The position numbers and the translations under genes were made by a program. From Polyangium fumosum (lineage in GTDB: Bacteria; Myxococcota_A; Polyangia; Polyangiales; Polyangiaceae): a stretch of DNA of 64,000 nucleotides. The notes under the pieces were generated by a model that saw only the letters and a list, made by a program, of their open reading frames with translations, ran no database searches and was not told the origin of the DNA. The stretch spans positions 186,001 through 250,000 of the forward strand of contig NZ_SSMQ01000003.1 in assembly GCF_005144585.1 (NCBI RefSeq), written 5' to 3'. Shown in pieces: positions 397 to 35,519 of this stretch (the first letter of the stretch is position 1; each line of letters starts with the position of its first letter).

Positions 397-1842
397 ATGA
401 TGGAGCCGATGCGCCGCTCCAGCTCTTTGCTCCTCGCTTTGCTCCCGACCCTCGCCCTCGTCGGCTGCACGCCCGACGAGGAGGTCCTGCCGCCCCCGCC
501 CCCGCCCCCGGGCCCCGCGGAATGGAACCGCGACGTCGACCCGCCGAGCGACGACGAGGCCGCCGCGAAGCGGGACGCCTGCGGATACACGGCGGGCATG
601 CTCCCCGCGGAGACGCAAGGGAAGTCGCACCCCTACGGTGCCGAGATTCCCGTCGATCACATCGTGGTCGTCATGATGGAGAATCGCTCCTTCGACCATT
701 ACTTCCAAAAGCTGCCCGAGTACGGCCAGGACGACGTCGACGTCGCGCCCGAGAACTTCACGAACCCCGACGACACCGACACCGCCGTCGCCACGTTCCG
801 CGACAGCCAGCTCTGCTTCGTGGACACGAACCACGAATGGACCGGCACGCACGAGCAGATCAACGGCGGCAAGATGGACGGGTTTTTCAAGACCAACGAC
901 GGCTGGCACGAGTTGCCGAGCGCCGGCGCCCCCGAGGACATGCTGAGCGGCCGCCGCGGCCTCGGTTACTACACCCAGGACGACCTGCCGTTTTATTACT
1001 GGCTCGCGAACGAGTTCGCCATCGCGGACCACTACCATTCCTCCGTCCCCGGCCCCACGTGGCCGAATCGCATGTACCTCTACGCGGCGAGCTCCTTCGG
1101 GGCCGTCCACAACACGTTCGTCACGCCGGACAAGACGCTCTTCGATTACCTCGAACTGCGGCAGGTCTCCTGGCGCGTGTACGTCTCCACCACCCCCGGC
1201 GCCGCGATCTTCGTCGACAAGTACCTCCAGTACAGCAAGGACGAGCACGGGCATTTCGTTCCGATCGAGAATTACTTCTACGACCTCGAGACCGGAAACC
1301 TGCCCCAGGTCGTGTTCGTCGATCCGGGCATCGCGCGGGAAGGGTATGCGCAGAACGACGAGCATCCGCCCGCGGTCGCCATGCTCGGCGAGCAGTTCTC
1401 CGCCACCGTCATCGACGCCCTCGCGAAGAGCTCGGCCTGGGATCGCTCCGCCCTGTTCCTCACATACGACGAGCACGGCGGCCTCTACGACCACGTCGTG
1501 CCTCCGGCCGCCTGCCCGCCCGACGAGATCACCCCGAAGCTCGAGCCGGGTGATACCGACGCGAAATTCGACCAGCTCGGCGTTCGTGTCCCCCTCCTCG
1601 TGGTCTCGCCCTACGCGAAAAAGCATTTCGTCGGTCACAAGACCTACGACCACACCTCGATCGTCCGCTTCATCGAGGCCCGCTTCCAGATGCCGGCCCT
1701 CACGAACCGCGACGCGAACGCCGAGGCGCCCTGGGAAATGTTCGACTTCGAAAACCCCCCGCACGCCGAGCCCCCCACGTTCGCGATGCCCACGGTCGAC
1801 CAGGCCAAACTCGATGCCTGCAAAGCGCTCTTCGAGCCCTGA
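397..1842 (+). CDS. Phosphoesterase / phospholipase C family lipoprotein (AcpA-like)
   Basis: A 481-residue exported protein with a lipoprotein signal peptide (lipobox LVGC, Cys24). Around residues 88-104 it carries the family signature DHIVVVMMENRSFDHYF, followed by GPTWPNR (~230) and DEHGGLYDHVVPP (~357-370). These are the metal and nucleophile regions of the phosphoesterase family that includes bacterial phospholipase C and AcpA acid phosphatase (alkaline-phosphatase-like fold). Expected role: hydrolysis of phosphodiester or phosphomonoester bonds of lipids or other substrates at the outer membrane or cell surface; the substrate cannot be read from sequence. Start: tandem ATG at 397/400. 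Its 3' end overlaps the next gene by 29 bp, so the two are probably co-transcribed. Confidence 0.88.
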   Translation: MMEPMRRSSSLLLALLPTLALVGCTPDEEVLPPPPPPPGPAEWNRDVDPPSDDEAAAKRDACGYTAGMLPAETQGKSHPYGAEIPVDHIVVVMMENRSFDHYFQKLPEYGQDDVDVAPENFTNPDDTDTAVATFRDSQLCFVDTNHEWTGTHEQINGGKMDGFFKTNDGWHELPSAGAPEDMLSGRRGLGYYTQDDLPFYYWLANEFAIADHYHSSVPGPTWPNRMYLYAASSFGAVHNTFVTPDKTLFDYLELRQVSWRVYVSTTPGAAIFVDKYLQYSKDEHGHFVPIENYFYDLETGNLPQVVFVDPGIAREGYAQNDEHPPAVAMLGEQFSATVIDALAKSSAWDRSALFLTYDEHGGLYDHVVPPAACPPDEITPKLEPGDTDAKFDQLGVRVPLLVVSPYAKKHFVGHKTYDHTSIVRFIEARFQMPALTNRDANAEAPWEMFDFENPPHAEPPTFAMPTVDQAKLDACKALFEP

Positions 1843-3694
1843 ACGCCTCGCCGCGCTCGTCCTCGCGGCCCTGCTCCTCGCGGGCTGCCCGGACGAGCCG
1901 GAGGCCCCCGCCCCCGCGGACACGAGCGCGAAGCCGGTCGTGTCCACGGCCCCGCCCGAGCCTCCGCCCTCCCCGCTCGTGCGGATCGTCGAGGAGCCTG
2001 CGCGCCGCGGCCTCGAGGCCCTCGAATCCCTCGTGGCTGCAATGCCCCAGGGCCGCGGCGATGCCGATTCCCATTACCTCGCCCTTCGCCGCTCCCTCGC
2101 CGCGGGCGCGCCGATCTGGCGCAGGCCGGAGAGCCTCGGCGGTGAGGTCGTCTTCGGCCCCCCGCGCTCCATCGACGAAGGCGGCGGCGCGCTCCTCCGC
2201 CTCGACGCCGCCCTCGTCCTCGGGGACGCCGCGGCCGCGCGCGTCGAAATGGTCACCCTCGACCGCGCCTTGCGCCTCTTCCAGAGCGAAGCGCGCCGCA
2301 TTCCGACCGTACCCGGGGTCGTCGCGCATGCGCTCTCGCTCGCCGCCTACGACCTCGGCGCCCTCGCGCTCGAATCGTTCCAGGGCGTCCCCGAGGGCTC
2401 CGCCGCCGTCCTCGCCGATCTCCGCGGCACCCTCGATTTCGTCGAATCCGCCTCCGCGGCCCTCGCGACCCCCGGGACCGCCGAAACCCCGGCCGCCCTC
2501 GCATCCGTGAAAGAAATCGCCGGGCCCCTCCGCGTGCGCCTCGATGCCGCGAAGATCGCCGACGACCTCGACGACCGCGCGAGCTTCGTCCTCGCCACCG
2601 GCCGCCTCGGCGCCGCGCTCCGCCGCCTCGTCGCCGCCGCCGGCCTCCCCGTTCGAATGCCGTACCGCGCCCGTTTCCCGGTCGCGAAGGCCGACGCGGA
2701 CGAGCCCGTCTCGGCCCTCACCCTCCCCGCCCCGCGCATCCGCCCGCGCAGCGCGAGCGGCGACGAAGCCACCTGGGCCGCGCTCGGCCGCAAGCTCTTC
2801 TTCGACAAACGTTTGTCGAAAAACAACGCTCGCTCCTGCGCAACCTGCCACGTCCCCGAAAGAGGCTTCGCCGACGGCCTCGTCCGCCCGCCTTCCCTCG
2901 ATCCGGCCGTCACGCTGCGCCATACCCCGACCTTGCTTTATGGCCCGCTGCACGCCGCCCAGCTCTGGGACGGCCGCGCGCTCACGCCCGAGCGCCAGGC
3001 CCTCGGCGTCATCCGCGCCCGCGCCGAAATGGGCCTCGAAACGGACGAGCTCCTCCACGCCATCGAATCCGCCGCGGACCTCCGCGCCCTCTTCCAGGCG
3101 CTCCCCACGCCCGGCGTCACCACCGACAACGTCGGCCGCGCGCTCGCCGCCTTCGAATCCGAGGCCTTCGTCCCCGGCGACGCCCCGATCGACGTATTTG
3201 CCCGTGGCGACGAAACGGCGCTCTCGCCCTTGCACCGCCGCGGCCTCGACGTCTTCGCCGGCAAGGGCCGCTGCGCCCGCTGCCACATTCCGCCTTTCTT
3301 CGGCGGCTCCCGCCCGCTCGATTTCGCCGTTCCCATCTTCGCCGTCCTCGGCGTCCCCGACAAACCCGGCGGCACCACCCTCGATGCGGACCGGGGCCGC
3401 GGCGCTCTCACCTCACGCCCGGCCGACGAGGGCGCATTCAAGACCCCGACGACCCGCGACGTCGCGCGCACGGCGCCGTATTTCCACCACGGCGCCTTCC
3501 GCACGCTCGAAGAGGTCGTCGATTTCTACGACAAGGGCGGCGGCAAGGGCCTCGGGATCCCCGTCCCGAACCAGGACCCCGACGTCCGCGCGCTCGGCCT
3601 CTCCGCCGACGAAAAACGCGCCCTCCTCGCCTTCCTCCGCGAAGCGCTCCTCGACAAAACGCCGCCCGAAAAGCTCACCGGCCCCCCGCGCTAA
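1814..3694 (+). CDS. Di-heme cytochrome c peroxidase (CcpA/MauG family) lipoprotein
   Basis: A 626-residue lipoprotein (lipobox LLAGC) with a ~300-residue N-terminal alpha-helical region of unknown role and a C-terminal di-heme peroxidase domain. Both covalent heme sites are present: CATCH (Cys342) and CARCH (Cys487). Around them are family motifs such as GRKLFFDKRLSKNN, LWDGRALTPERQALG and FKTPTTRDVARTAPYFHHG. Family role: H2O2 reduction, or MauG-like oxidation of a partner, in the periplasm. The start at ATG 1814 lies inside the upstream phosphoesterase gene and gives an ideal signal peptide. The stop codon overlaps the stop of the converging histidine kinase gene. A second, broken member of the family lies at 27056-27831. 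Confidence 0.9.
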   Translation: MPAKRSSSPERLAALVLAALLLAGCPDEPEAPAPADTSAKPVVSTAPPEPPPSPLVRIVEEPARRGLEALESLVAAMPQGRGDADSHYLALRRSLAAGAPIWRRPESLGGEVVFGPPRSIDEGGGALLRLDAALVLGDAAAARVEMVTLDRALRLFQSEARRIPTVPGVVAHALSLAAYDLGALALESFQGVPEGSAAVLADLRGTLDFVESASAALATPGTAETPAALASVKEIAGPLRVRLDAAKIADDLDDRASFVLATGRLGAALRRLVAAAGLPVRMPYRARFPVAKADADEPVSALTLPAPRIRPRSASGDEATWAALGRKLFFDKRLSKNNARSCATCHVPERGFADGLVRPPSLDPAVTLRHTPTLLYGPLHAAQLWDGRALTPERQALGVIRARAEMGLETDELLHAIESAADLRALFQALPTPGVTTDNVGRALAAFESEAFVPGDAPIDVFARGDETALSPLHRRGLDVFAGKGRCARCHIPPFFGGSRPLDFAVPIFAVLGVPDKPGGTTLDADRGRGALTSRPADEGAFKTPTTRDVARTAPYFHHGAFRTLEEVVDFYDKGGGKGLGIPVPNQDPDVRALGLSADEKRALLAFLREALLDKTPPEKLTGPPR

Positions 3695-26450: not shown

Positions 26451-26476
26451 GGCCTCGAGCAAGATCAGCCGAGGCC
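26451..26476. terminator. Hairpin between converging genes
   Basis: GGCCTCG (26451-26457) and CGAGGCC (26470-26476), a perfect 7-bp stem with a 12-nt loop that includes the stop codon of the minus-strand kinase fragment. No T tract. Confidence 0.4.
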
Positions 26477-26995
26477 AGCGGGCCGGCACGCGCCTGCCAC
26501 GACCACGCGGAGGCCCGGCGCCTCACCGGCCTCGAATCGGACCTCCCAGCCAAGCCGTCGAGCCGCCTCCAGCGTGACGGTGAGTCCCAGGCCGCCGCTC
26601 CGAGGGCGAGCTTCGTCGCCGCCGAACGTGGCCTCCTGCAAGCTCGCAAGCTGATCTCGCCCAATGCCCGGCCCGTCGTCGGCGACGGTCAGCTCGAACG
26701 TGTCGCCCTCCCGCTCGAGGATCACCGCGACGTGACCGCCGTGGCGACCGTGGCGCACGGCGTTGTGGACGAGGTTCGCGATCGCTCGCTCGGCCAGCGC
26801 GGGCGCGCCCGACGTGATCACCGGCCGTTCGGGGAACGACGCCGCCACCTCCACACCGCGGAGGGCACCAAGCGCCGCGAACCGGGCTTCGAGCCGCTGC
26901 ACGATCTCGCACAGGTCGACGACGCCTGCTGCGGAGGACTCGAGGCCTCGCCGGAGCAATGTCCCCTGGTGCAGGTTATCGACGAGGGCGTTCAC
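26465..26995 (-). pseudogene. Histidine kinase C-terminal fragment (HATPase domain)
   Basis: The frame encodes ~176 residues matching the dimerisation-end and ATPase part of a sensor kinase: DDAEYVNALVDNL, N-box IANLVHNAVRHG, G1 VADDGPGIG and G2 GGLGLTVTLEAA. The sensor region and the phospho-accepting H-box are absent: a TGA closes the frame only ~14 codons upstream of the sole possible start (GTG 26995), and nothing upstream encodes the missing part. So this is a 5'-truncated relic, or at best a free-standing ATPase module. It lies 60 bp downstream of the peroxidase pseudogene on the same strand. Confidence 0.7.
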
Positions 26996-27055: not shown

Positions 27056-27831
27056 TTACCTTCCTCCCGCCGGTGGCAACCCGCTGGGCACGCGCTCCGG
27101 GATCGTTCGATCGAACGTCCCGTCGGAGAGCGCCTCAAAAAACACGAGAATGTCATCACCTTGGCCATGCGCGACCTCGACGTCCCCCTCGACCAGCGGG
27201 TCGACTTTGATGTGGTGGTCGATGTTGTGATAGAAGTCCACCGTCTCGCTGAGCGTCTCGAACACGCCGTTGTGCATGTACGGCGCGGTGCGGGTCACCA
27301 TGCGCAGCGATGGCGTCCGGAACGCGCCGCCTTCGGCTTCGGGGAATACGGATTCGCCGTAGCCGGTCTCGCCGATGCGCGCCGGCACCTTGAGGTTGTG
27401 CAGCTTGTAGTCCGAGAGCATCGGGCCGGAGTGGCAGCCCGAGCAGCCCTGGGAAATGAAGCCGTGCAGGCCGCGGATCTGCGACGTGGTCATCGCGTCG
27501 TCGTCGCCGGCCATGTACCGATCGAACGAGCTGTCCCTCGGCACCAGCGTGCGCTCGAAGGCCGCGAGCGCCTTGGCGAGGTTCGTCGCATTCACGCTCT
27601 CCGCGCCGAACGCCGCCTCGAACAGCGTGGTGTACGCGGGGATGGCCACGAGAGGATCGGATCCCAGAACAACATACGCCCGAGCTCGACCGCTTCGGGG
27701 GTGGTCGGATTGTCGTCCGGCGCCGGCACGCTTTCGGGGAGCGAGGCGAGCGTCTCTCGCGCATCCGGCGTCAGGGTGCACCCGGTGGCGACCAGCGCGG
27801 CAAGGAGGGACTACGTCTTGAATGCCTTCAC
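27056..27831 (-). pseudogene. Di-heme cytochrome c peroxidase pseudogene
   Basis: Three lesions in one gene. GTG 27831, with GGAGG upstream and a GTGA overlap with the preceding gene's stop, starts MKAFKT, then a TAG, then SLLAALVATGC (a lipobox) and ELGRMLFWDPILS, the usual beginning of the family. There the frame breaks, and the other frame continues with PLVAIPAYTTLFEAAFG through CSGCH (second heme site) to MVTRTAPYMHNG and the normal end. The ~140 residues between, including the first heme CxxCH, are missing: a deletion with frameshift plus a nonsense codon in the signal peptide. It cannot make a working enzyme. An intact paralogue sits at 1814-3694. Confidence 0.82.
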
Positions 27832-28460
27832 GACGGCCTCCGGGTCCATACCTGCCTCCCCAGCCACACCATGAAGGTGTTGTCCCATGGCAGGGTCTCG
27901 ATGCCGGTGTATTTCTCGTAGAACGGCGAGGGGAGCAGATTGAAATCCACGCCCAAACCAAGGTCGAACCCCCAGAAACGAGCCCCGATCTGGACCTTGG
28001 CCGTCAGGGTCGCTCCGACGTCGGTGGCGCTGGCGATCCTCTGGGGCAAAAGGACGCTCATTTGCTCGACGTAGGGGATCGCGCCGAGGCCGACCTGGGC
28101 CCACGGTCCGACGTTTTTCCACGGAAAGACCCGCAGGCTGACGCCGAGCGGGCCAAGGTACCGTTGCGACCCTTGGGTCCAAATCACGCTCATGCCGGCG
28201 TTCGCGACCACCTGCGTATGGGCGCTCGTTCGCCATCCGACCTCCGCGCCCACCCACGGGCCGGGGTTCTCGTAGATCAGGAACGTCGGAAACAACGCGC
28301 CCGCCGTGACGGTCACATTCTCCGGGCCCAGCGCATGGTGCTTGCCGCGCTCGTCGGCGCGCGCCTCGGCGCTCCAGGTCAGCGCGAGGATCAGAGGGAT
28401 TCCGAGGATGCGAGGAGGACGAGGCGGTCTTGAAGGTAGGGGGATGCGGTCTTGAAGCAT
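27828..28460 (-). CDS. Outer-membrane beta-barrel-like protein
   Basis: 210 residues; signal peptide with cleavage after EARA. The mature part is a series of short amphipathic strands with Gly/aromatic residues (NVTVTAGALFPTFL, WVGAEVGWRTSA, GPWAQVGLGAIP, GARFWGFDLGLGVDFNLL), as in small outer-membrane barrels. It ends VWLGRQVWTRRPS rather than in Phe. Its stop overlaps the GTG start of the peroxidase pseudogene (GTGA), so the two were translationally coupled. ATG 28460 has a short stem (GGACC/GGTCC) immediately upstream and a PhoB-like direct repeat at 28481-28500. Confidence 0.65.
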   Translation of the reverse strand: MLQDRIPLPSRPPRPPRILGIPLILALTWSAEARADERGKHHALGPENVTVTAGALFPTFLIYENPGPWVGAEVGWRTSAHTQVVANAGMSVIWTQGSQRYLGPLGVSLRVFPWKNVGPWAQVGLGAIPYVEQMSVLLPQRIASATDVGATLTAKVQIGARFWGFDLGLGVDFNLLPSPFYEKYTGIETLPWDNTFMVWLGRQVWTRRPS

Positions 28461-29091: not shown

Positions 29092-31086
29092 ATGACCATG
29101 ACGCGGAACAAGAGCTCGTACGTCGTATGTCTCGCCTTATTTCTTCTCGTTTCTCCCGCGGCCCGCGCATCAGAGGGTGATCGCTGCAGTCCGCAGATCG
29201 CGAACAATTCGGCGGCTGCCGGCGTCTGCACGCCCGTTTGCGCGAGGTTCAAGATGGCATTCGCGGGGAACTGGAGCAACGTTCGGAGTCACCCGCCCGT
29301 GGCATCGTGCATCGCGGCGAACGCAGGCCTGGCCGTTTGCGGCTGCACGTATACGACGCCGGCGCCGAGCGGCGTGGTTACGCCGACGGTCGAAGACGTC
29401 GACGCGACGCCGCCGCCGCGCCTCCCCATCGGCCTGAGGGCAACGTGTCTCGACGGACCGGACACATTGAACAGCAGCGGGAGTTGTCCCGTCGTGGGCA
29501 CCGGCAACGGGATCACGTTCTGGGCGTTGAGCTACGCCGACGACAGGAATGGCATGGCCATCGTCGGATACGACGCGGGCGGCAACGTCGTTTCTCTCCT
29601 CGAGAGAACGGGCGCGCATTACGTGTGGGACATCACCGTGGATGCGACGAACCAGACCATCTCCTTCTTTGGCCAGTCGAACCAGACCATCACGCTGAAC
29701 TGGAACGATCTCTTCGTTCCTCAGATCGGCAGCCGCACGAATGCGAGTTACGTCCTCTGGCCGACGGCCACGAGCGGTACGGCGTCCTGGACCAACGGCG
29801 CCGCGAATTACGGGACCGCCGCCCCCTTCGGCGCCGGTGCGAATCAACTGCTCGACCCGTACGTGGAGCACGCCGCCGGCATGCAGCTTTGCGCCTCGAC
29901 GCAAAAACCGTGGTTCGACTTCGCTACCGCCACCGTTGCCTCTCCGTATTCGACGGTCACGTGTACCCAGCCGCCTGACCCGGCGCAACCGACGTACAAC
30001 GCGGCGATGGTTGCATTGCTGAACGCCGCGGTCGGTGATCACGGTCTGATGGCCGCCTTGCGCGCAGCCACGACGGACGAACGACTCATCGCAGTCGCCG
30101 CCAGCAAGGGATACACGATCACCGAGGCCGACATCCAGCAAAGCCGAGGAACGCTCCCTTCGACGACGGGGTCGGTGTCGTCGAGATTGGTGGCGGCGGC
30201 GAGCAGTTCATCGTCCTGCGGCAATGTCAATCAGAGGCCGTGCACCACGTGCGCGCGGGAACAGTGCGTCTACTTTCCGTTCAACTTCTGCTGCATCGAG
30301 GAATCGTGTTCGTGTACTGGGTATGGGACCAGTTGCGCACCGGGATTGAGCGTCGGCGGGAACGGCACCTGCCAGCCCGCCTGTCCCGAGAATCAGATTT
30401 GCAAAGAATTCACTGTCTTCTATGAATACAACGACAACGGCACCAAGGACAACGGCGTGTGCGAGTCGTGGCTGAGCAAGCCCACTTGTGCAAAGGGCAT
30501 CCCGAACGACGCTCTCGCCTCGTATGAAGTCATCTTCAAGAGCGATGGGCTCGCGTATTACAAGTCCGACAATACCTTGGTGAATACGTGGACGGGGGGC
30601 CAGCACAGGGAAACGCTGTACGTGATCGACGGAAGAACCAGCAAGATCTACCTGGTCAACGTCGACGGGCGTTACATCCAGGTTCGCGGAACGGCCAACT
30701 GCATTCCGGCGTCCGTCGCACCAGGCGGATCGACCGCGACTTGCAGCAAGCCGAGGCTGACCACGCACGCAGGAATCCTGATGGGATCGGTCTACGGATT
30801 GCCGACGCCGAGCCAGGAGCCGGCAGCGAGCGTTCAGCAACGGATCGCCGTCATCGGTGCAGGCACGATCCAGGTCACGAACGGCGCGATTCAATGGATC
30901 ACGAATGACAGCGGGCACTTCAAGCCGACGCAGGACAACCTGAAAACCAGCATCGCCGTCTTCAAGCGCGCCGGATTCCCGAACTTCCCGCCGCTCGGCG
31001 ACTGCACGTACGACTTCCGGCCGGTCACAGGCAAACCCGGGGTCTATCGTCAGGACGCGACCACCGCGACCCATTGCGAGTTGTGA
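29092..31086 (+). CDS. Cys-rich secreted protein of unknown function (lower GC than neighbours)
   Basis: 664 residues with a Sec signal peptide cleaved after ARAS. Residues ~25-90 contain paired Cys (SPQIANN.., CTPVC, CGCTY); ~120-280 is a beta-rich domain (ITFWALSYADDRNGMAIVGY, WDITVDATNQTISFFGQ); a Cys knot follows at ~380-440 (RPCTTC, CCIEESCSC, CQPACPENQICKE). The C-terminal ~200 residues contain TNDSGHFKPTQDNLKTSI, a pattern (SGHFKP..NL) seen near the end of secreted proteins of unknown role. I do not recognise a catalytic site. Third-position GC is visibly lower than in flanking genes, and a tandem array lies directly upstream, both suggesting acquisition. ATG 29092 follows GAGAGGGGG. 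Confidence 0.65.
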   Translation: MTMTRNKSSYVVCLALFLLVSPAARASEGDRCSPQIANNSAAAGVCTPVCARFKMAFAGNWSNVRSHPPVASCIAANAGLAVCGCTYTTPAPSGVVTPTVEDVDATPPPRLPIGLRATCLDGPDTLNSSGSCPVVGTGNGITFWALSYADDRNGMAIVGYDAGGNVVSLLERTGAHYVWDITVDATNQTISFFGQSNQTITLNWNDLFVPQIGSRTNASYVLWPTATSGTASWTNGAANYGTAAPFGAGANQLLDPYVEHAAGMQLCASTQKPWFDFATATVASPYSTVTCTQPPDPAQPTYNAAMVALLNAAVGDHGLMAALRAATTDERLIAVAASKGYTITEADIQQSRGTLPSTTGSVSSRLVAAASSSSSCGNVNQRPCTTCAREQCVYFPFNFCCIEESCSCTGYGTSCAPGLSVGGNGTCQPACPENQICKEFTVFYEYNDNGTKDNGVCESWLSKPTCAKGIPNDALASYEVIFKSDGLAYYKSDNTLVNTWTGGQHRETLYVIDGRTSKIYLVNVDGRYIQVRGTANCIPASVAPGGSTATCSKPRLTTHAGILMGSVYGLPTPSQEPAASVQQRIAVIGAGTIQVTNGAIQWITNDSGHFKPTQDNLKTSIAVFKRAGFPNFPPLGDCTYDFRPVTGKPGVYRQDATTATHCEL

Positions 31087-31807: not shown

Positions 31808-33070
31808 TCACCCGCACGTCGCGTCGCACGCGGCCTGATCCTCCACGCCGCAGGCCTGCGCGAGGCAGGCCGCGCAATCGCCGAGATCACTGCCCTGGCA
31901 CCGCTGCGCGCATTCCTTGCCGCGCTTCACCTCGTGGCAACGCACGAGCGCCGAGACCTCGGCCGCGACGGCGGGACAGGCGCGGTGCACGCAATCGTAA
32001 TACGCGTAGCCCACGCCCTTCTCGCCCTTCAACGCCTCCCCGAGGCACGTGACGGTCTCCGTCCCGCTGGCCTTCCCGCTGCCCACCCACGTCGCCGACG
32101 GCGCGCCGCTCGTGTCCTGGCACCGCTCGAACGCCTCGTTTTTCGGGAAATACGGGCCGATGAGCTGGCACATCTCGTCCGTCGAGGAGAGGCCATACGT
32201 AATGGGCCGCGTCTCGCTGCTTCGATAATTGCAGCGGATGTCGAGGGTGCTCCCCTGACGGAAGACCAGGGGTGGATCGAGCTCGCGTACGGGCGGCTCC
32301 TGCCAGGACGTCGTCGAATAAATGGACGTGGTCGTCCCGTCGGGCGCGCGGAGCGCAGCGTCGAAGGAGACGCCGCGCGCGTGCATGTGCGATTGCAAGC
32401 TCACCACCTTGACGTCGGCGGGCACGGGGCAACGCATGCGCGCCGCGGCCTCGCCGAGGGGCGGCACGCGGAGGACGTGGTTGTCCATGTACAAGAGGCC
32501 GGCCTCGATCTGGAGGTCCTCGCGGGGCATGGTGTAGACGTTGATGCGGGCGTCGACCTCGATCGGGGCGGTGGTCGTATTGAGGTAATGGGTGCTCATG
32601 ACGAGCACCGTGGAGGGCTCGACGATGACACCCACGCCGTCGGGCAATCGATGGAGCATCCCCACGCTGCCGAAGCTCTCGGATCCGCCGAGCACGGCGT
32701 CGACCTTCCAGCGCGCGGTGGCGCCTTGCGAGCAATCGTGTTCCGTGAGGGCGTCGACGGCAATCCCCTGCTCGTCGTGGGACGGAATCTCCTTGTACGG
32801 GGTCCGATACAAGAGGACGTGATGTCCGCCCAGACCGAACACGACGTCTTGCCCCCGGATCACGAGCCCTTCGGGCGGCACCTGGAAGAGCTGGCAACCG
32901 TAGGATTCGGTCCCCGAGGCGATGGTGGAGGTCATCCGATATTGAAGGCCCGCGCCCTCCGCGGGCGGGTCGAGGAGAGATTTTCCCGCAGACTGGGTGG
33001 AGGGCTCGTCGGGTGTGCACGCCGTCGCGAGGAGCGCGGCAATGAAGACGATGTATTTGTTGGATTTCAA
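31808..33070 (-). CDS. PHM/DBH-like type II copper monooxygenase lipoprotein
   Basis: 420 residues from TTG 33070, which gives signal peptide YIVFIAALLATAC (Cys18) behind a GGGGGGAA Shine-Dalgarno; no ATG fits. The copper ligands of peptidylglycine alpha-hydroxylating / dopamine beta-monooxygenase enzymes occur in the correct order: GGHHVLLY (His83, His84) and MSTHYLNT (His161) for the electron-transfer copper; SHMHARG (His228, His230) and STDEMC (Met300) for the catalytic copper. Expected chemistry: O2-dependent, ascorbate-type hydroxylation of an unknown substrate outside the cytoplasm. A Cys-rich tail (CAACLAQACG..ACDATCG) of ~60 residues follows, as in other myxobacterial surface proteins. 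Confidence 0.82.
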   Translation of the reverse strand: MKSNKYIVFIAALLATACTPDEPSTQSAGKSLLDPPAEGAGLQYRMTSTIASGTESYGCQLFQVPPEGLVIRGQDVVFGLGGHHVLLYRTPYKEIPSHDEQGIAVDALTEHDCSQGATARWKVDAVLGGSESFGSVGMLHRLPDGVGVIVEPSTVLVMSTHYLNTTTAPIEVDARINVYTMPREDLQIEAGLLYMDNHVLRVPPLGEAAARMRCPVPADVKVVSLQSHMHARGVSFDAALRAPDGTTTSIYSTTSWQEPPVRELDPPLVFRQGSTLDIRCNYRSSETRPITYGLSSTDEMCQLIGPYFPKNEAFERCQDTSGAPSATWVGSGKASGTETVTCLGEALKGEKGVGYAYYDCVHRACPAVAAEVSALVRCHEVKRGKECAQRCQGSDLGDCAACLAQACGVEDQAACDATCG

Positions 33071-33182
33071 TCGGTTCCCCCCGTCGTCATGAGCCTTCTC
33101 TTCGCAGAAGTGCCCGGACCCGCAGGGGATTTGCACATGACGTGCCCGGCCGTTCGGGCCGGTCGTCCGCCACGAACGATGC

Positions 33183-34307
33183 TTATTTCGGGGCTGGCGC
33201 CGGCGCGGGGGTCGCAACGGCCGGCGCGGCCTCCGCCGCGGGTTTCGCGGGCTTCGCAGGCTCGGGCGGCGCGGGGGGTTTTCTGGAGTATCCGAGGCCG
33301 AGCGTGAGCATCATTCCGTTACGTATCTGCCATTGATCGGTGAGCTGGGGCTGGCGGACGAGCTTGAGCTCGTAATCGAGCGTCGCCCACTCGACGACTT
33401 TGAAGGAAATGGCGGCGCCGATGTCCAGGTTCGTGAGCTGTAGCGGGTTCTTTTTGCTTTCCCCGGCCGCGGGGATGTCATTGTTCCACGCCGGGATCAG
33501 CGCACCCACGCCGACCTTGTAGGAGATCTTCTTGTCCGAGAACGAGCCCCACATTTCGAGCGAACCCTCGACGCCGACCTGGAGGACGTCGCGGAGCTCC
33601 TGCACCTCGACGCGATCGGTCGTGGCCGTGTCGTCCTTCAAGATGAGCTGTCCGTCGGCAAACGTCTGCAATCCGCCGACGCCGATGCGGGTCTCCAGGT
33701 TGAATCGATCCCCGGAGACAGGGCGCGCGAAGGGGCCGACGGTCTCTTTCAGCGTGAGCGGACGAAACGGATCGGTGAGCGTGAGGCGGCGCGAGGTGAC
33801 GGTATCGACCGTGCCGGCGACGCGGGCGATGGAGTACGTGGTGTCGGTGGGGCGGACGTCGAATCCACGGAAGAGGGGCGTGCCCAGGGTGAGGCGGGCG
33901 AAGGGGCCAAACCAGGGACGCACGAAATAAAGGTAGGTGCTCTCGATGGTGAAGGCGTCGGCGCTCTTGACGGGCTCTTCGAGGGCCGGCGTCTTCGTGA
34001 GCGCCTCGTTGATGCCGAGGACGGTGCGCCATTCGTGGCCTCTGCGCCGGTACGTCGCGACGCCGTCGAACTTGAGACCCACGGTGAGCGTGGAGCCATT
34101 CGGCGTGACGCCGACGACGTCGCGCGTGTCCACGAGCGAGAACGTGGCGCCGTTTTTCATGGTGATCTCGAGCCCGTCCTGCTTGGGCGGGTCGGCGATC
34201 GCGACGTCCACGTATTGTTTGGTGGCAGCGTTCTGCGCGTGGGAGGCCGCAGGCGCGGAGAGGAGGGCGGCCAGCATCGCGGCCGAAAGGAGTGTACGTC
34301 GGGACAT
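33183..34307 (-). CDS. Outer-membrane beta-barrel protein (DUF3078-like)
   Basis: 374 residues with a Sec signal (AAMLAALLSAPAASHA-Q). The mature part is alternating-strand sequence typical of barrels: GVATYRRRGHEWRTVLGINE, FTIESTYLYFVRPWFGPFA, KISYKVGVGALIPAWNND, ATLDYELKLVRQPQLTDQWQ. It ends with a Pro/Ala/Lys tail of ~40 residues. The N-terminal pattern LGINEALTKTPAL.. resembles DUF3078-type outer-membrane proteins. ATG 34307 is directly preceded by GAGGAACC, which can pair with an upstream 10-bp complement (see 34308-34402). Confidence 0.72.
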   Translation of the reverse strand: MSRRTLLSAAMLAALLSAPAASHAQNAATKQYVDVAIADPPKQDGLEITMKNGATFSLVDTRDVVGVTPNGSTLTVGLKFDGVATYRRRGHEWRTVLGINEALTKTPALEEPVKSADAFTIESTYLYFVRPWFGPFARLTLGTPLFRGFDVRPTDTTYSIARVAGTVDTVTSRRLTLTDPFRPLTLKETVGPFARPVSGDRFNLETRIGVGGLQTFADGQLILKDDTATTDRVEVQELRDVLQVGVEGSLEMWGSFSDKKISYKVGVGALIPAWNNDIPAAGESKKNPLQLTNLDIGAAISFKVVEWATLDYELKLVRQPQLTDQWQIRNGMMLTLGLGYSRKPPAPPEPAKPAKPAAEAAPAVATPAPAPAPK

Positions 34308-34526: not shown

Positions 34527-35519
34527 GTGTCCACGAAACGAACCCTTCCTTTCGCGGGGGTGATCGGCTTGCTCGGAATGCTGGCCGCCGCCCCCGTGCA
34601 CGCCTACTGCCGGACCAGCACGACGAGCGCGCCCACCGTCGACGGGCACGTCTGCACGCCGTCCCAGAAAGACGACAGCGGCCTTCCCCTCTATTGGGGC
34701 ATGCCGCGGATCACGTACTCCGTCCAGGTGGACGCCTCCAAGGACGTCCCGTTCGACACGGCCCGTCTCGCCGTCCGCACGGCCTTCGACGCGTGGACGT
34801 CCGCCGACTGCGAGGGACAGCCGCCACGCCTCGAGCTCATCGAAGGCGCCCCCGCGATCTGTGCGCTCGACGAATACAACAAGGACCGCGGCAACGCGAA
34901 CATCGTCTTTTTCGTGGACGAAGGCTGGAGCGACGACACCGTCAAGCTCGCCATCACGACGGTGACGTTCGACGTGAACAGCGGCGAGATCTACGACGCC
35001 GACATGGCGCTGAACAGCACGCACTGGACCTTCACGACCGACGGCGCGCCGGACGGCATCGATCTGCTGTCGGTGCTCACCCACGAGGCCGGCCATTTCC
35101 TCGGGCTCGCCCACTCGCCCGACCCCGAGGCCTCGATGACCGCGCACTACCAACCGCCGGAGCAGATGGACATGCGCAGCCTCGCCGAGGACGACCGCGC
35201 CGGCATCTGCGCGATCTACCCGCCCGGGCCCCTCGCCAACGACTGCGACGCGACGCCGCGGCACGGCTTCTCCCCCGTGTGCGCCGAAGACCAATCCGGC
35301 CCCGTCCTCGACGCGCCCCCCACCGGCGATCGCTGCTGCTGCCTGGAAGAGGACACGTGCGTCGACGGCATCTGCGTCGAGGCGCCGGGCGGCTGCGCCT
35401 GCACGACGCACGCCGCCCCGCTCGGCCCGGGGGCCGTCACGCTCCCTCTCGCCGCGCTCGTGGCCTCCCTGCGGCGACGTCGGGCCGCCAGGGGCAGGCG
35501 GGCGCGAGCCCCCTCGTGA
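34527..35519 (+). CDS. Matrixin-like zinc metalloprotease with MYXO-CTERM-like tail
   Basis: 330 residues, GTG start, Sec signal ending PVHA. The catalytic motif HEAGHFLGLAHS gives zinc ligands His186, His190 and His196 and catalytic Glu187; a Met-turn follows (EASMTAHY). The N-terminal half has the matrixin-like AVRTAFDAW helix. After residue ~235 the sequence is Cys-rich (DRCCCLEEDTCVDGICVE). It ends GGCACTTHAAP, a hydrophobic stretch and RRRRAARGRR: Cys, one hydrophobic helix, then an Arg cluster, the plan of MYXO-CTERM sorting signals that anchor proteins in the outer membrane of myxobacteria. Expected: a surface-held protease. Confidence 0.88.
   Translation: MSTKRTLPFAGVIGLLGMLAAAPVHAYCRTSTTSAPTVDGHVCTPSQKDDSGLPLYWGMPRITYSVQVDASKDVPFDTARLAVRTAFDAWTSADCEGQPPRLELIEGAPAICALDEYNKDRGNANIVFFVDEGWSDDTVKLAITTVTFDVNSGEIYDADMALNSTHWTFTTDGAPDGIDLLSVLTHEAGHFLGLAHSPDPEASMTAHYQPPEQMDMRSLAEDDRAGICAIYPPGPLANDCDATPRHGFSPVCAEDQSGPVLDAPPTGDRCCCLEEDTCVDGICVEAPGGCACTTHAAPLGPGAVTLPLAALVASLRRRRAARGRRARAPS

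What the first reader, a model, noticed from the sequence alone, without database searches (positions are those of the whole stretch)
31808..33070. Bacterial lipoprotein with the full copper-ligand set of PHM/DBH monooxygenases
All five His ligands and the Met ligand appear in the order known from animal peptidylglycine monooxygenase, plus a Cys-rich tail, on a lipoprotein started by TTG. Bacterial members are little characterised; the substrate and the electron donor are unknown.
Basis: partly seen in the sequence, partly recalled or inferred. Interest (0 to 1): 0.6.

Follow-up and report, generated by a model that had tools for sequence, protein, structure and literature searches.

The report
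Myxobacterial copper hydroxylase lipoprotein with Cys-rich tail
A soil bacterium carries, probably anchored on its envelope, a relative of the two-copper enzymes that animals use to make noradrenaline and peptide hormones; it is one of thirteen such genes in the genome, eight of which carry a built-in heme domain that could feed them electrons in place of vitamin C.

Summary
The gene at 33070..31808 (-) encodes a 420-aa putative lipoprotein whose His83/84/161 and His228/230/Met300 fall on the six copper ligands of rat PHM. A family profile matches PHM at E=3e-32 and DBH at 2e-24. A low-confidence AlphaFold model of the core still ranks PHM first (Z 15.4, 233 residues; best unrelated row 7.3). 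It has the PHM/DBH fold, but is not a PHM: the positions of Arg240/Asn316/Tyr318 (peptide-anchoring role recalled) hold Gln/Gln/Ile.

New here: (1) the host has 13 such genes, all with the full ligand set; (2) 8 of 13 carry an N-terminal CxxCH domain like a c-type cytochrome, which suggests heme c as electron donor; (3) the gene belongs to a heme-less clade, in a 19-row subclade marked by a 93-130-aa Cys-rich tail; (4) the tail evolves fast while ten of its cysteines stay. The family passes the Pfam cut-off in 206 of 377 genomes sampled from the phylum.

Substrate and this protein's own donor remain unknown. Ten library searches listed no paper on bacterial copper members.

The parts
31808..33070 (-). 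Whole gene: two-copper type II monooxygenase-like putative lipoprotein, 420 aa, TTG start
   Evidence: translation; PF03712 over cut-off; full-length orthologues in 6 genus genomes incl. own
33017..33070 (-). Signal peptide and lipobox (LATAC), Cys18 as lipidation site (inferred)
   Evidence: sequence; Cys invariant in 16 of 16 aligned
32144..32950 (-). PHM/DBH-type catalytic core, residues 41-309
   Evidence: profile vs PDB; fold match Z 15.4 with a model of residues 40-312; Ka/Ks 0.24-0.28
32819..32824 (-). His83-His84, CuH ligands (PHM H107/H108)
32588..32590 (-). His161, CuH ligand (PHM H172)
32381..32389 (-). His228-x-His230, CuM ligands (PHM H242/H244)
32171..32173 (-). Met300, CuM ligand (PHM M314), in DEMC motif
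31811..32143 (-). Cys-rich C-terminal tail, residues 310-420, 12 Cys; 10 of them at the same place in 6 of 6 distinct genus copies
   Evidence: fast-evolving
33183..34307 (-). Directly upstream neighbour on the same strand, 112 bp away, kept in the genus: putative outer-membrane protein (inference; DUF3078 match below cut-off); start set by the 374-aa orthologue of L073

Best explanation
It is an envelope-anchored, oxygen-using C-H hydroxylase of the PHM/DBH (copper type II monooxygenase) superfamily. CuH (His83, His84, His161) takes up single electrons and passes them to CuM (His228, His230, Met300), which binds O2 and hydroxylates an exported or extracellular substrate that is not a peptidyl-glycine. 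Electrons most likely come from a c-type cytochrome of the cell envelope: in 8 of 13 paralogues such a domain is fused at the N terminus, while this protein belongs to a clade without it and would take electrons in trans from a separate cytochrome or from a small reductant such as ascorbate. The C-terminal Cys-rich tail is probably a disulfide-stabilised helical add-on (structural or dimerising, in the position of the roughly 100-residue C-terminal domain of DBH). Shown here: homology, ligand set, fold match, lipobox motif, paralogue architectures. Inferred: lipidation, copper binding, activity, electron donor, role of the tail. Unknown: substrate.
For: Ligand columns invariant; PHM E=3.2e-32 and DBH 2.1e-24 with the family profile; fold match Z 15.4 to PHM over 233 residues, and Foldseek ranks 1-30 are all PHM or DBH. 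Core Cys C59/C113 and C280/C301 correspond to PHM C81/C126 and C293/C315; C59/C113 are lost together in L027 and L101. CxxCH domain in 8 of 13 paralogues, and an MP motif 15-75 residues downstream in 27 of 27 CxxCH rows; that part of the family profile matches cytochrome c6 in the PDB (E=9.9e-4). PHM anchor positions R240/N316/Y318 are Q226/Q302/I304, and Arg occurs at 240 only in the rat row.
Against: No biochemical evidence. Only the C-terminal Pfam domain reaches its cut-off in the window protein; the N-terminal one (PF01082) is not reported for it at E<=1. A model of the fused heme domain finds nothing at E<=1 in 18 neighbourhoods of heme-less members, the whole window included; two heme-like neighbours seen otherwise (a urate-oxidase-type membrane protein with CxxCH beside L024, and a small putative lipoprotein with CxCH beside L048) are single cases, so donation in trans has little support from linkage. 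The genome has one ALO-family protein (possible ascorbate-type lactone oxidase), so ascorbate is not excluded, though that search also rings in 3 of 14 control bacteria. One row, L089, lacks C59 but keeps C113, against strict pairing. The Pfam cytochrome match of the paralogues is below its cut-off in 8 of 8. The AlphaFold model has pLDDT under 50 over much of the CuH domain.
Confidence: 0.7

Rival explanations
1. Ascorbate- (or other small-reductant-) driven enzyme like animal PHM/DBH, with no heme partner; the heme-less clade is then a functionally separate branch.
For: The window protein and its 34-row clade lack the heme domain; no neighbour of the fused heme type at E<=1; one ALO-family protein in the genome; PHM and DBH use ascorbate (PMC6123673 and PMC4846438, passages).
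Against: 8 of 13 paralogues in the same genome have the fused heme domain; ascorbate in the bacterial periplasm is not established (general knowledge).
Confidence: 0.35
2. True peptidylglycine hydroxylase making C-terminally amidated peptides in the bacterium.
For: Same fold and ligands; the PHM Tyr79 position is Tyr57.
Against: R240, N316 and Y318 positions are Gln, Gln, Ile (that these anchor the peptide carboxylate is recalled). No PAL-type domain was reported for the window neighbours scanned, but the genome was not searched for PAL.
Confidence: 0.05
3. Copper-binding or copper-storage lipoprotein that kept the fold but does no catalysis; the Cys-rich tail binds Cu(I).
For: 12 Cys in the tail, fast evolution of the tail, lipobox.
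Against: All six ligands and four core Cys stay invariant over 16 diverse sequences, more than a buffer would seem to need; tail Cys 415 and 419 are present or absent together, which fits a disulfide.
Confidence: 0.1

Closest known systems
Peptidylglycine alpha-hydroxylating monooxygenase (PHM, rat, 1OPM)
   Same: Two-domain fold (1OPM Z 14.9, best PHM entry 15.4), all six Cu ligands, the Cys positions 81/126 and 293/315, and Cys at position 227
   Different: No Arg240/Asn316/Tyr318; no Cys at positions 114, 131 and 186; lipobox; Cys-rich tail of about 110 aa
Dopamine beta-hydroxylase (DBH, human, 4ZEL)
   Same: Same core fold (Z 12.3); E=2.1e-24 with the family profile; DBH too has a C-terminal domain of about 100 residues with disulfides (PMC4846438, passages)
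   Different: No DOMON domain (only about 22 residues lie between lipobox and core); 8 of 13 bacterial paralogues have a cytochrome-like domain in that place; no sequence relation of the tails was tested
Heme-fused bacterial PF03712/PF01082 lipoproteins of the same genome (L001-L006, L008, L011)
   Same: Lipobox Cys, ligand set, core cysteines
   Different: N-terminal CxxCH domain (invariant C, C, H and MPP in the 6 aligned); tails of L001 and L004 are 30 and 11 aa with 1 and 0 Cys
Glycine-cleaving monooxygenase domain of the myxothiazol/melithiazol assembly lines of myxobacteria
   Same: Called a PHM domain in one passage of PMC9396620; also myxobacterial
   Different: Acts inside a PKS/NRPS; recalled, not tested here, to be a flavin-type domain unrelated to the copper fold

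Membership tests
Copper type II ascorbate-dependent monooxygenase superfamily (PF01082/PF03712) | C-terminal (CuM) domain profile over curated cut-off | tested here: met
   38.2 bits vs 23
Copper type II ascorbate-dependent monooxygenase superfamily (PF01082/PF03712) | N-terminal (CuH) domain profile over curated cut-off | tested here: inconclusive
   not reported for the window protein at E<=1; of 10 paralogues scanned, L001 passes (54.7 vs 30 bits), 7 match below cut-off, L009 and L012 show none at E<=0.05; CuH ligands align
Copper type II ascorbate-dependent monooxygenase superfamily (PF01082/PF03712) | Three His at CuH | tested here: met
   H83, H84, H161 on PHM H107, H108, H172
Copper type II ascorbate-dependent monooxygenase superfamily (PF01082/PF03712) | His-x-His and Met at CuM | tested here: met
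   H228, H230, M300 on PHM H242, H244, M314
Copper type II ascorbate-dependent monooxygenase superfamily (PF01082/PF03712) | Two-domain beta-sandwich fold of PHM | tested here: met
   Z 15.4, 233 residues, rmsd 3.3, from a low-confidence model
Copper type II ascorbate-dependent monooxygenase superfamily (PF01082/PF03712) | Copper binding and O2-dependent hydroxylation with ascorbate | not testable with these tools
   needs protein
PHM (peptide amidation) | Peptide-carboxylate anchors R240, N316, Y318 (role recalled) | tested here: not met
   Q226, Q302, I304
PHM (peptide amidation) | Partner lyase PAL | not tested
   no genome search for PAL was made
DBH | N-terminal DOMON domain | tested here: not met
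   only PF03712 found at E<=1; about 22 residues between lipobox and core leave no room

The most novel reading that the evidence does not exclude
Myxobacteria have a large, unstudied set of cell-envelope two-copper hydroxylases wired to heme c rather than ascorbate; the window gene represents a heme-less, Cys-tailed branch that draws electrons in trans from an envelope cytochrome and hydroxylates an extracellular non-peptide substrate (a secondary metabolite, signal or prey molecule).
Probability: 0.3. Interest if true: 0.68.

Novelty: new variant of a known kind. Interest (0 to 1): 0.47.

Why it matters
PHM and DBH have long served as models for how two distant, uncoupled coppers share electrons, and are known mainly from animals (recalled). 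A bacterial family with 13 copies in one genome, 8 of them with a likely heme donor on the same chain, would make the electron-entry step directly testable and offers many natural variants (one, L039, has His in place of the CuM Met). It also points to unexplored oxygenase chemistry in the envelope of soil myxobacteria.

Tried and rejected
AlphaFold on the full protein with 4 sequences failed (pLDDT 32.7); the core alone gave 51.5, and only its fold match is used, no geometry. A single-sequence search of the PDB found nothing at E<=1; the profile did. Two scans of viral contigs and one of plasmids confirmed no relative at E<=1e-3. Among the called genes around the own-genome paralogues, BLAST found one cross-hit between non-PHM genes, of a frame that may not be a gene, so there is no shared partner; neighbour genes of only four paralogues (around L012, L013, L001 and L002) were scanned with Pfam. 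Several neighbours are kept within the genus; only the one directly upstream is adjacent on the same strand. The Cys-rich tail is found elsewhere in the genome in paralogues L012 and L013 (E 1.3e-3 and 7e-5); four weaker hits (E 0.014-0.44) were only read in their frames and look like chance. The cytochrome b561 search was silent also in the controls, so it says nothing. Literature: ten searches of an open-access library; I saw listings (one search showed 10 of 61) and passages of PMC4598998, PMC6123673, PMC4846438 and PMC9396620. No listed paper treats bacterial copper members; PMC9396620 mentions a PHM domain in myxothiazol biosynthesis, which I recall as a flavin-type enzyme. Subscription papers are not covered. 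The first tree had stray '.' characters in its rows and was redone clean with the same heme and tail clades; the window numbering is wrong and was redone. One search shows L083 with Tyr at His84 and one search shows L041 with Leu at Cys113; the MAFFT alignment shows His in all rows and no Leu at the Cys column, so I treat these as alignment slips. Rows left out of the tree: L017-L020 (same proteins as L015, L014, L016 and the window gene) and L029, L043, L086 (partial). The 73 bacterial rows are a biased sample (mostly best hits of three searches), so 27 with CxxCH of 73 is not a frequency. My gene caller is a crude GC3 rule and some called frames are not genes; its listing was cut in the output and the neighbourhoods around PHM genes were re-read, where L059 and L070 showed no called PHM gene.

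Full report
The gene. The minus-strand frame 33070..31808 starts with TTG, encodes 420 aa and has a lipobox-like motif ending at Cys18. Pfam finds only the C-terminal domain of copper type II monooxygenases, PF03712, over its cut-off; NCBIfam gives no match at E<=1. It lies in a 12.98-Mb genome; three named Polyangium strains hold 79-80% identical orthologues and sit among the same-genus rows of the tree, so the window is very likely Polyangium.

Ligands. I aligned the window protein with 12 paralogues and 3 Polyangium orthologues. Sixteen columns are invariant: Cys18, C59, H83, H84, C113, P143, H161, H228, H230, G233, G245, C280, G293, E299, M300, C301. A profile of this alignment finds rat PHM at E=3.2e-32 and human DBH at 2.1e-24. 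In a clean alignment of 73 bacterial rows and rat PHM, the six ligands fall on PHM H107, H108, H172, H242, H244 and M314; His is kept in 74 of 74 rows at all five sites and Met in 73 of 74. PHM ligands H107, H108, H172, H242, H244 and M314 are named in passages and section titles of PMC6123673, the DBH ligands in a passage of PMC4846438.

Fold. Even so, the 30 best Foldseek matches are PHM or DBH, and VIA-align gives Z 15.4 over 233 residues to PHM, 12.3 to DBH and 7.3 to the best unrelated chain. This supports the two-domain fold, not the geometry of the copper sites.

What it is not. The positions of PHM Arg240, Asn316 and Tyr318, which I recall as the anchors of the peptide carboxylate, hold Gln226, Gln302 and Ile304; among 74 rows Arg occurs at 240 only in rat. 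No DOMON domain was found. So it works like the PHM/DBH core but is neither PHM nor DBH.

Paralogues and heme. The genome has 13 PF03712 matches, all over the cut-off, against 0 of 14 control genomes. Eight of 13 have a CxxCH motif between lipobox and core. In six of these aligned together, Cys45, Cys48, His49 and Met81-Pro-Pro (L004 numbers) are invariant, and an MP motif follows CxxCH in 27 of 27 such rows of the wider set of 80 proteins. In the PDB the corresponding part of the family profile matches cytochrome c6 (E=9.9e-4); the Pfam Cytochrome_CBB3 match is below its cut-off in all 8. This looks like a c-type cytochrome with His/Met ligands, in the place where DBH has its DOMON domain, and is the best hint to the electron donor.

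Tree. In a tree of 74 rows the CxxCH label needs 2 changes (shuffled mean 22.3). The window protein lies in a heme-less group of 34 rows (99/90), within a subgroup of 19 rows (97/96). All 19 of these have a tail of 93-130 aa after DEMC with 7-15 Cys; 12 rows outside it that I printed have tails of 11-39 aa with 0-4 Cys. In the own genome the window gene, L012 and L013 have this tail; L009 and L010 have neither this tail nor heme. A separate 12-row heme-less group (mostly family f13, with L048) shows that lack of heme is not special to the window clade.

Tail. Ka/Ks against 5 orthologues is 0.24-0.28 in the core and 0.75-0.99 in the tail (simple Nei-Gojobori estimate, which codon bias distorts). 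Ten tail Cys are at the same positions in six distinct genus copies, and Cys415 and Cys419 are present or absent together (present in L007, L021, L022; absent in L014-L016). This fits a disulfide-held spacer or dimerisation domain better than a catalytic one. DBH likewise has a C-terminal domain of about 100 residues with intermolecular disulfides (PMC4846438); this is an analogy.

Spread. PF03712 passes its cut-off in 206 of 377 genomes sampled from the phylum and in 28 of 39 near relatives, own genome included, with up to 24 copies in one genome. A profile of the window subfamily matches 186 of 377; many of those matches stop near the end of the core, so the tail is rarer, but I did not count it.

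Context. The gene directly upstream on the same strand, a putative outer-membrane protein, is 91-92% identical in three Polyangium strains. No neighbour with the fused heme type was found at E<=1 in 18 neighbourhoods, the whole window among them. Two heme-like neighbours of other heme-less members were seen by the family profile: a urate-oxidase-type membrane protein with a C-terminal CxxCH, divergent from L024, and a 156-aa putative lipoprotein with CxCH next to L048. They are single cases and prove no partnership.

Judgement. Membership in the superfamily is well supported by sequence and fold. An active copper hydroxylase is the most likely reading (0.7). Electrons from heme c in trans versus ascorbate is open. 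The substrate is unknown.

Noticed in passing
window 27059-28003 (-): Di-heme cytochrome c peroxidase (CCP_MauG) fragment: only profile positions 99-148 match, so the N-terminal half seems lost.
   Followed up: partly
window 947-3691 (+): A second CCP_MauG match (E 6e-35) inside a long open frame.
   Followed up: no
window 26465-26995 (-): Short histidine-kinase ATPase domain (176 aa) that looks like a fragment.
   Followed up: no
window 29092-31086 (+): 664-aa protein with a Nif11 domain over the Pfam cut-off (the NCBIfam leader model is below its cut-off), a domain recalled from RiPP leader peptides.
   Followed up: no
window 34527-35516 (+): Matrixin-type metalloprotease with a C terminus that resembles MYXO-CTERM below its cut-off.
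   Followed up: no
L039: Family member with His in place of the CuM Met ligand (DEHC instead of DEMC).
   Followed up: partly
L048 2103-2570 (-): 156-aa putative lipoprotein next to a heme-less member; matches the family profile (E 2.6e-5), has CxCH instead of CxxCH and no Pfam match.
   Followed up: partly
L068 4961-6184 (-): Urate-oxidase-type membrane protein (Urate_ox_N, E 3.6e-100) with C-terminal CxxCH, divergent from the tailed member L024.
   Followed up: partly
window 33071-33090 (-): One-base difference puts an upstream ATG out of frame in this strain, while it is in frame in 5 other genus copies.
   Followed up: partly
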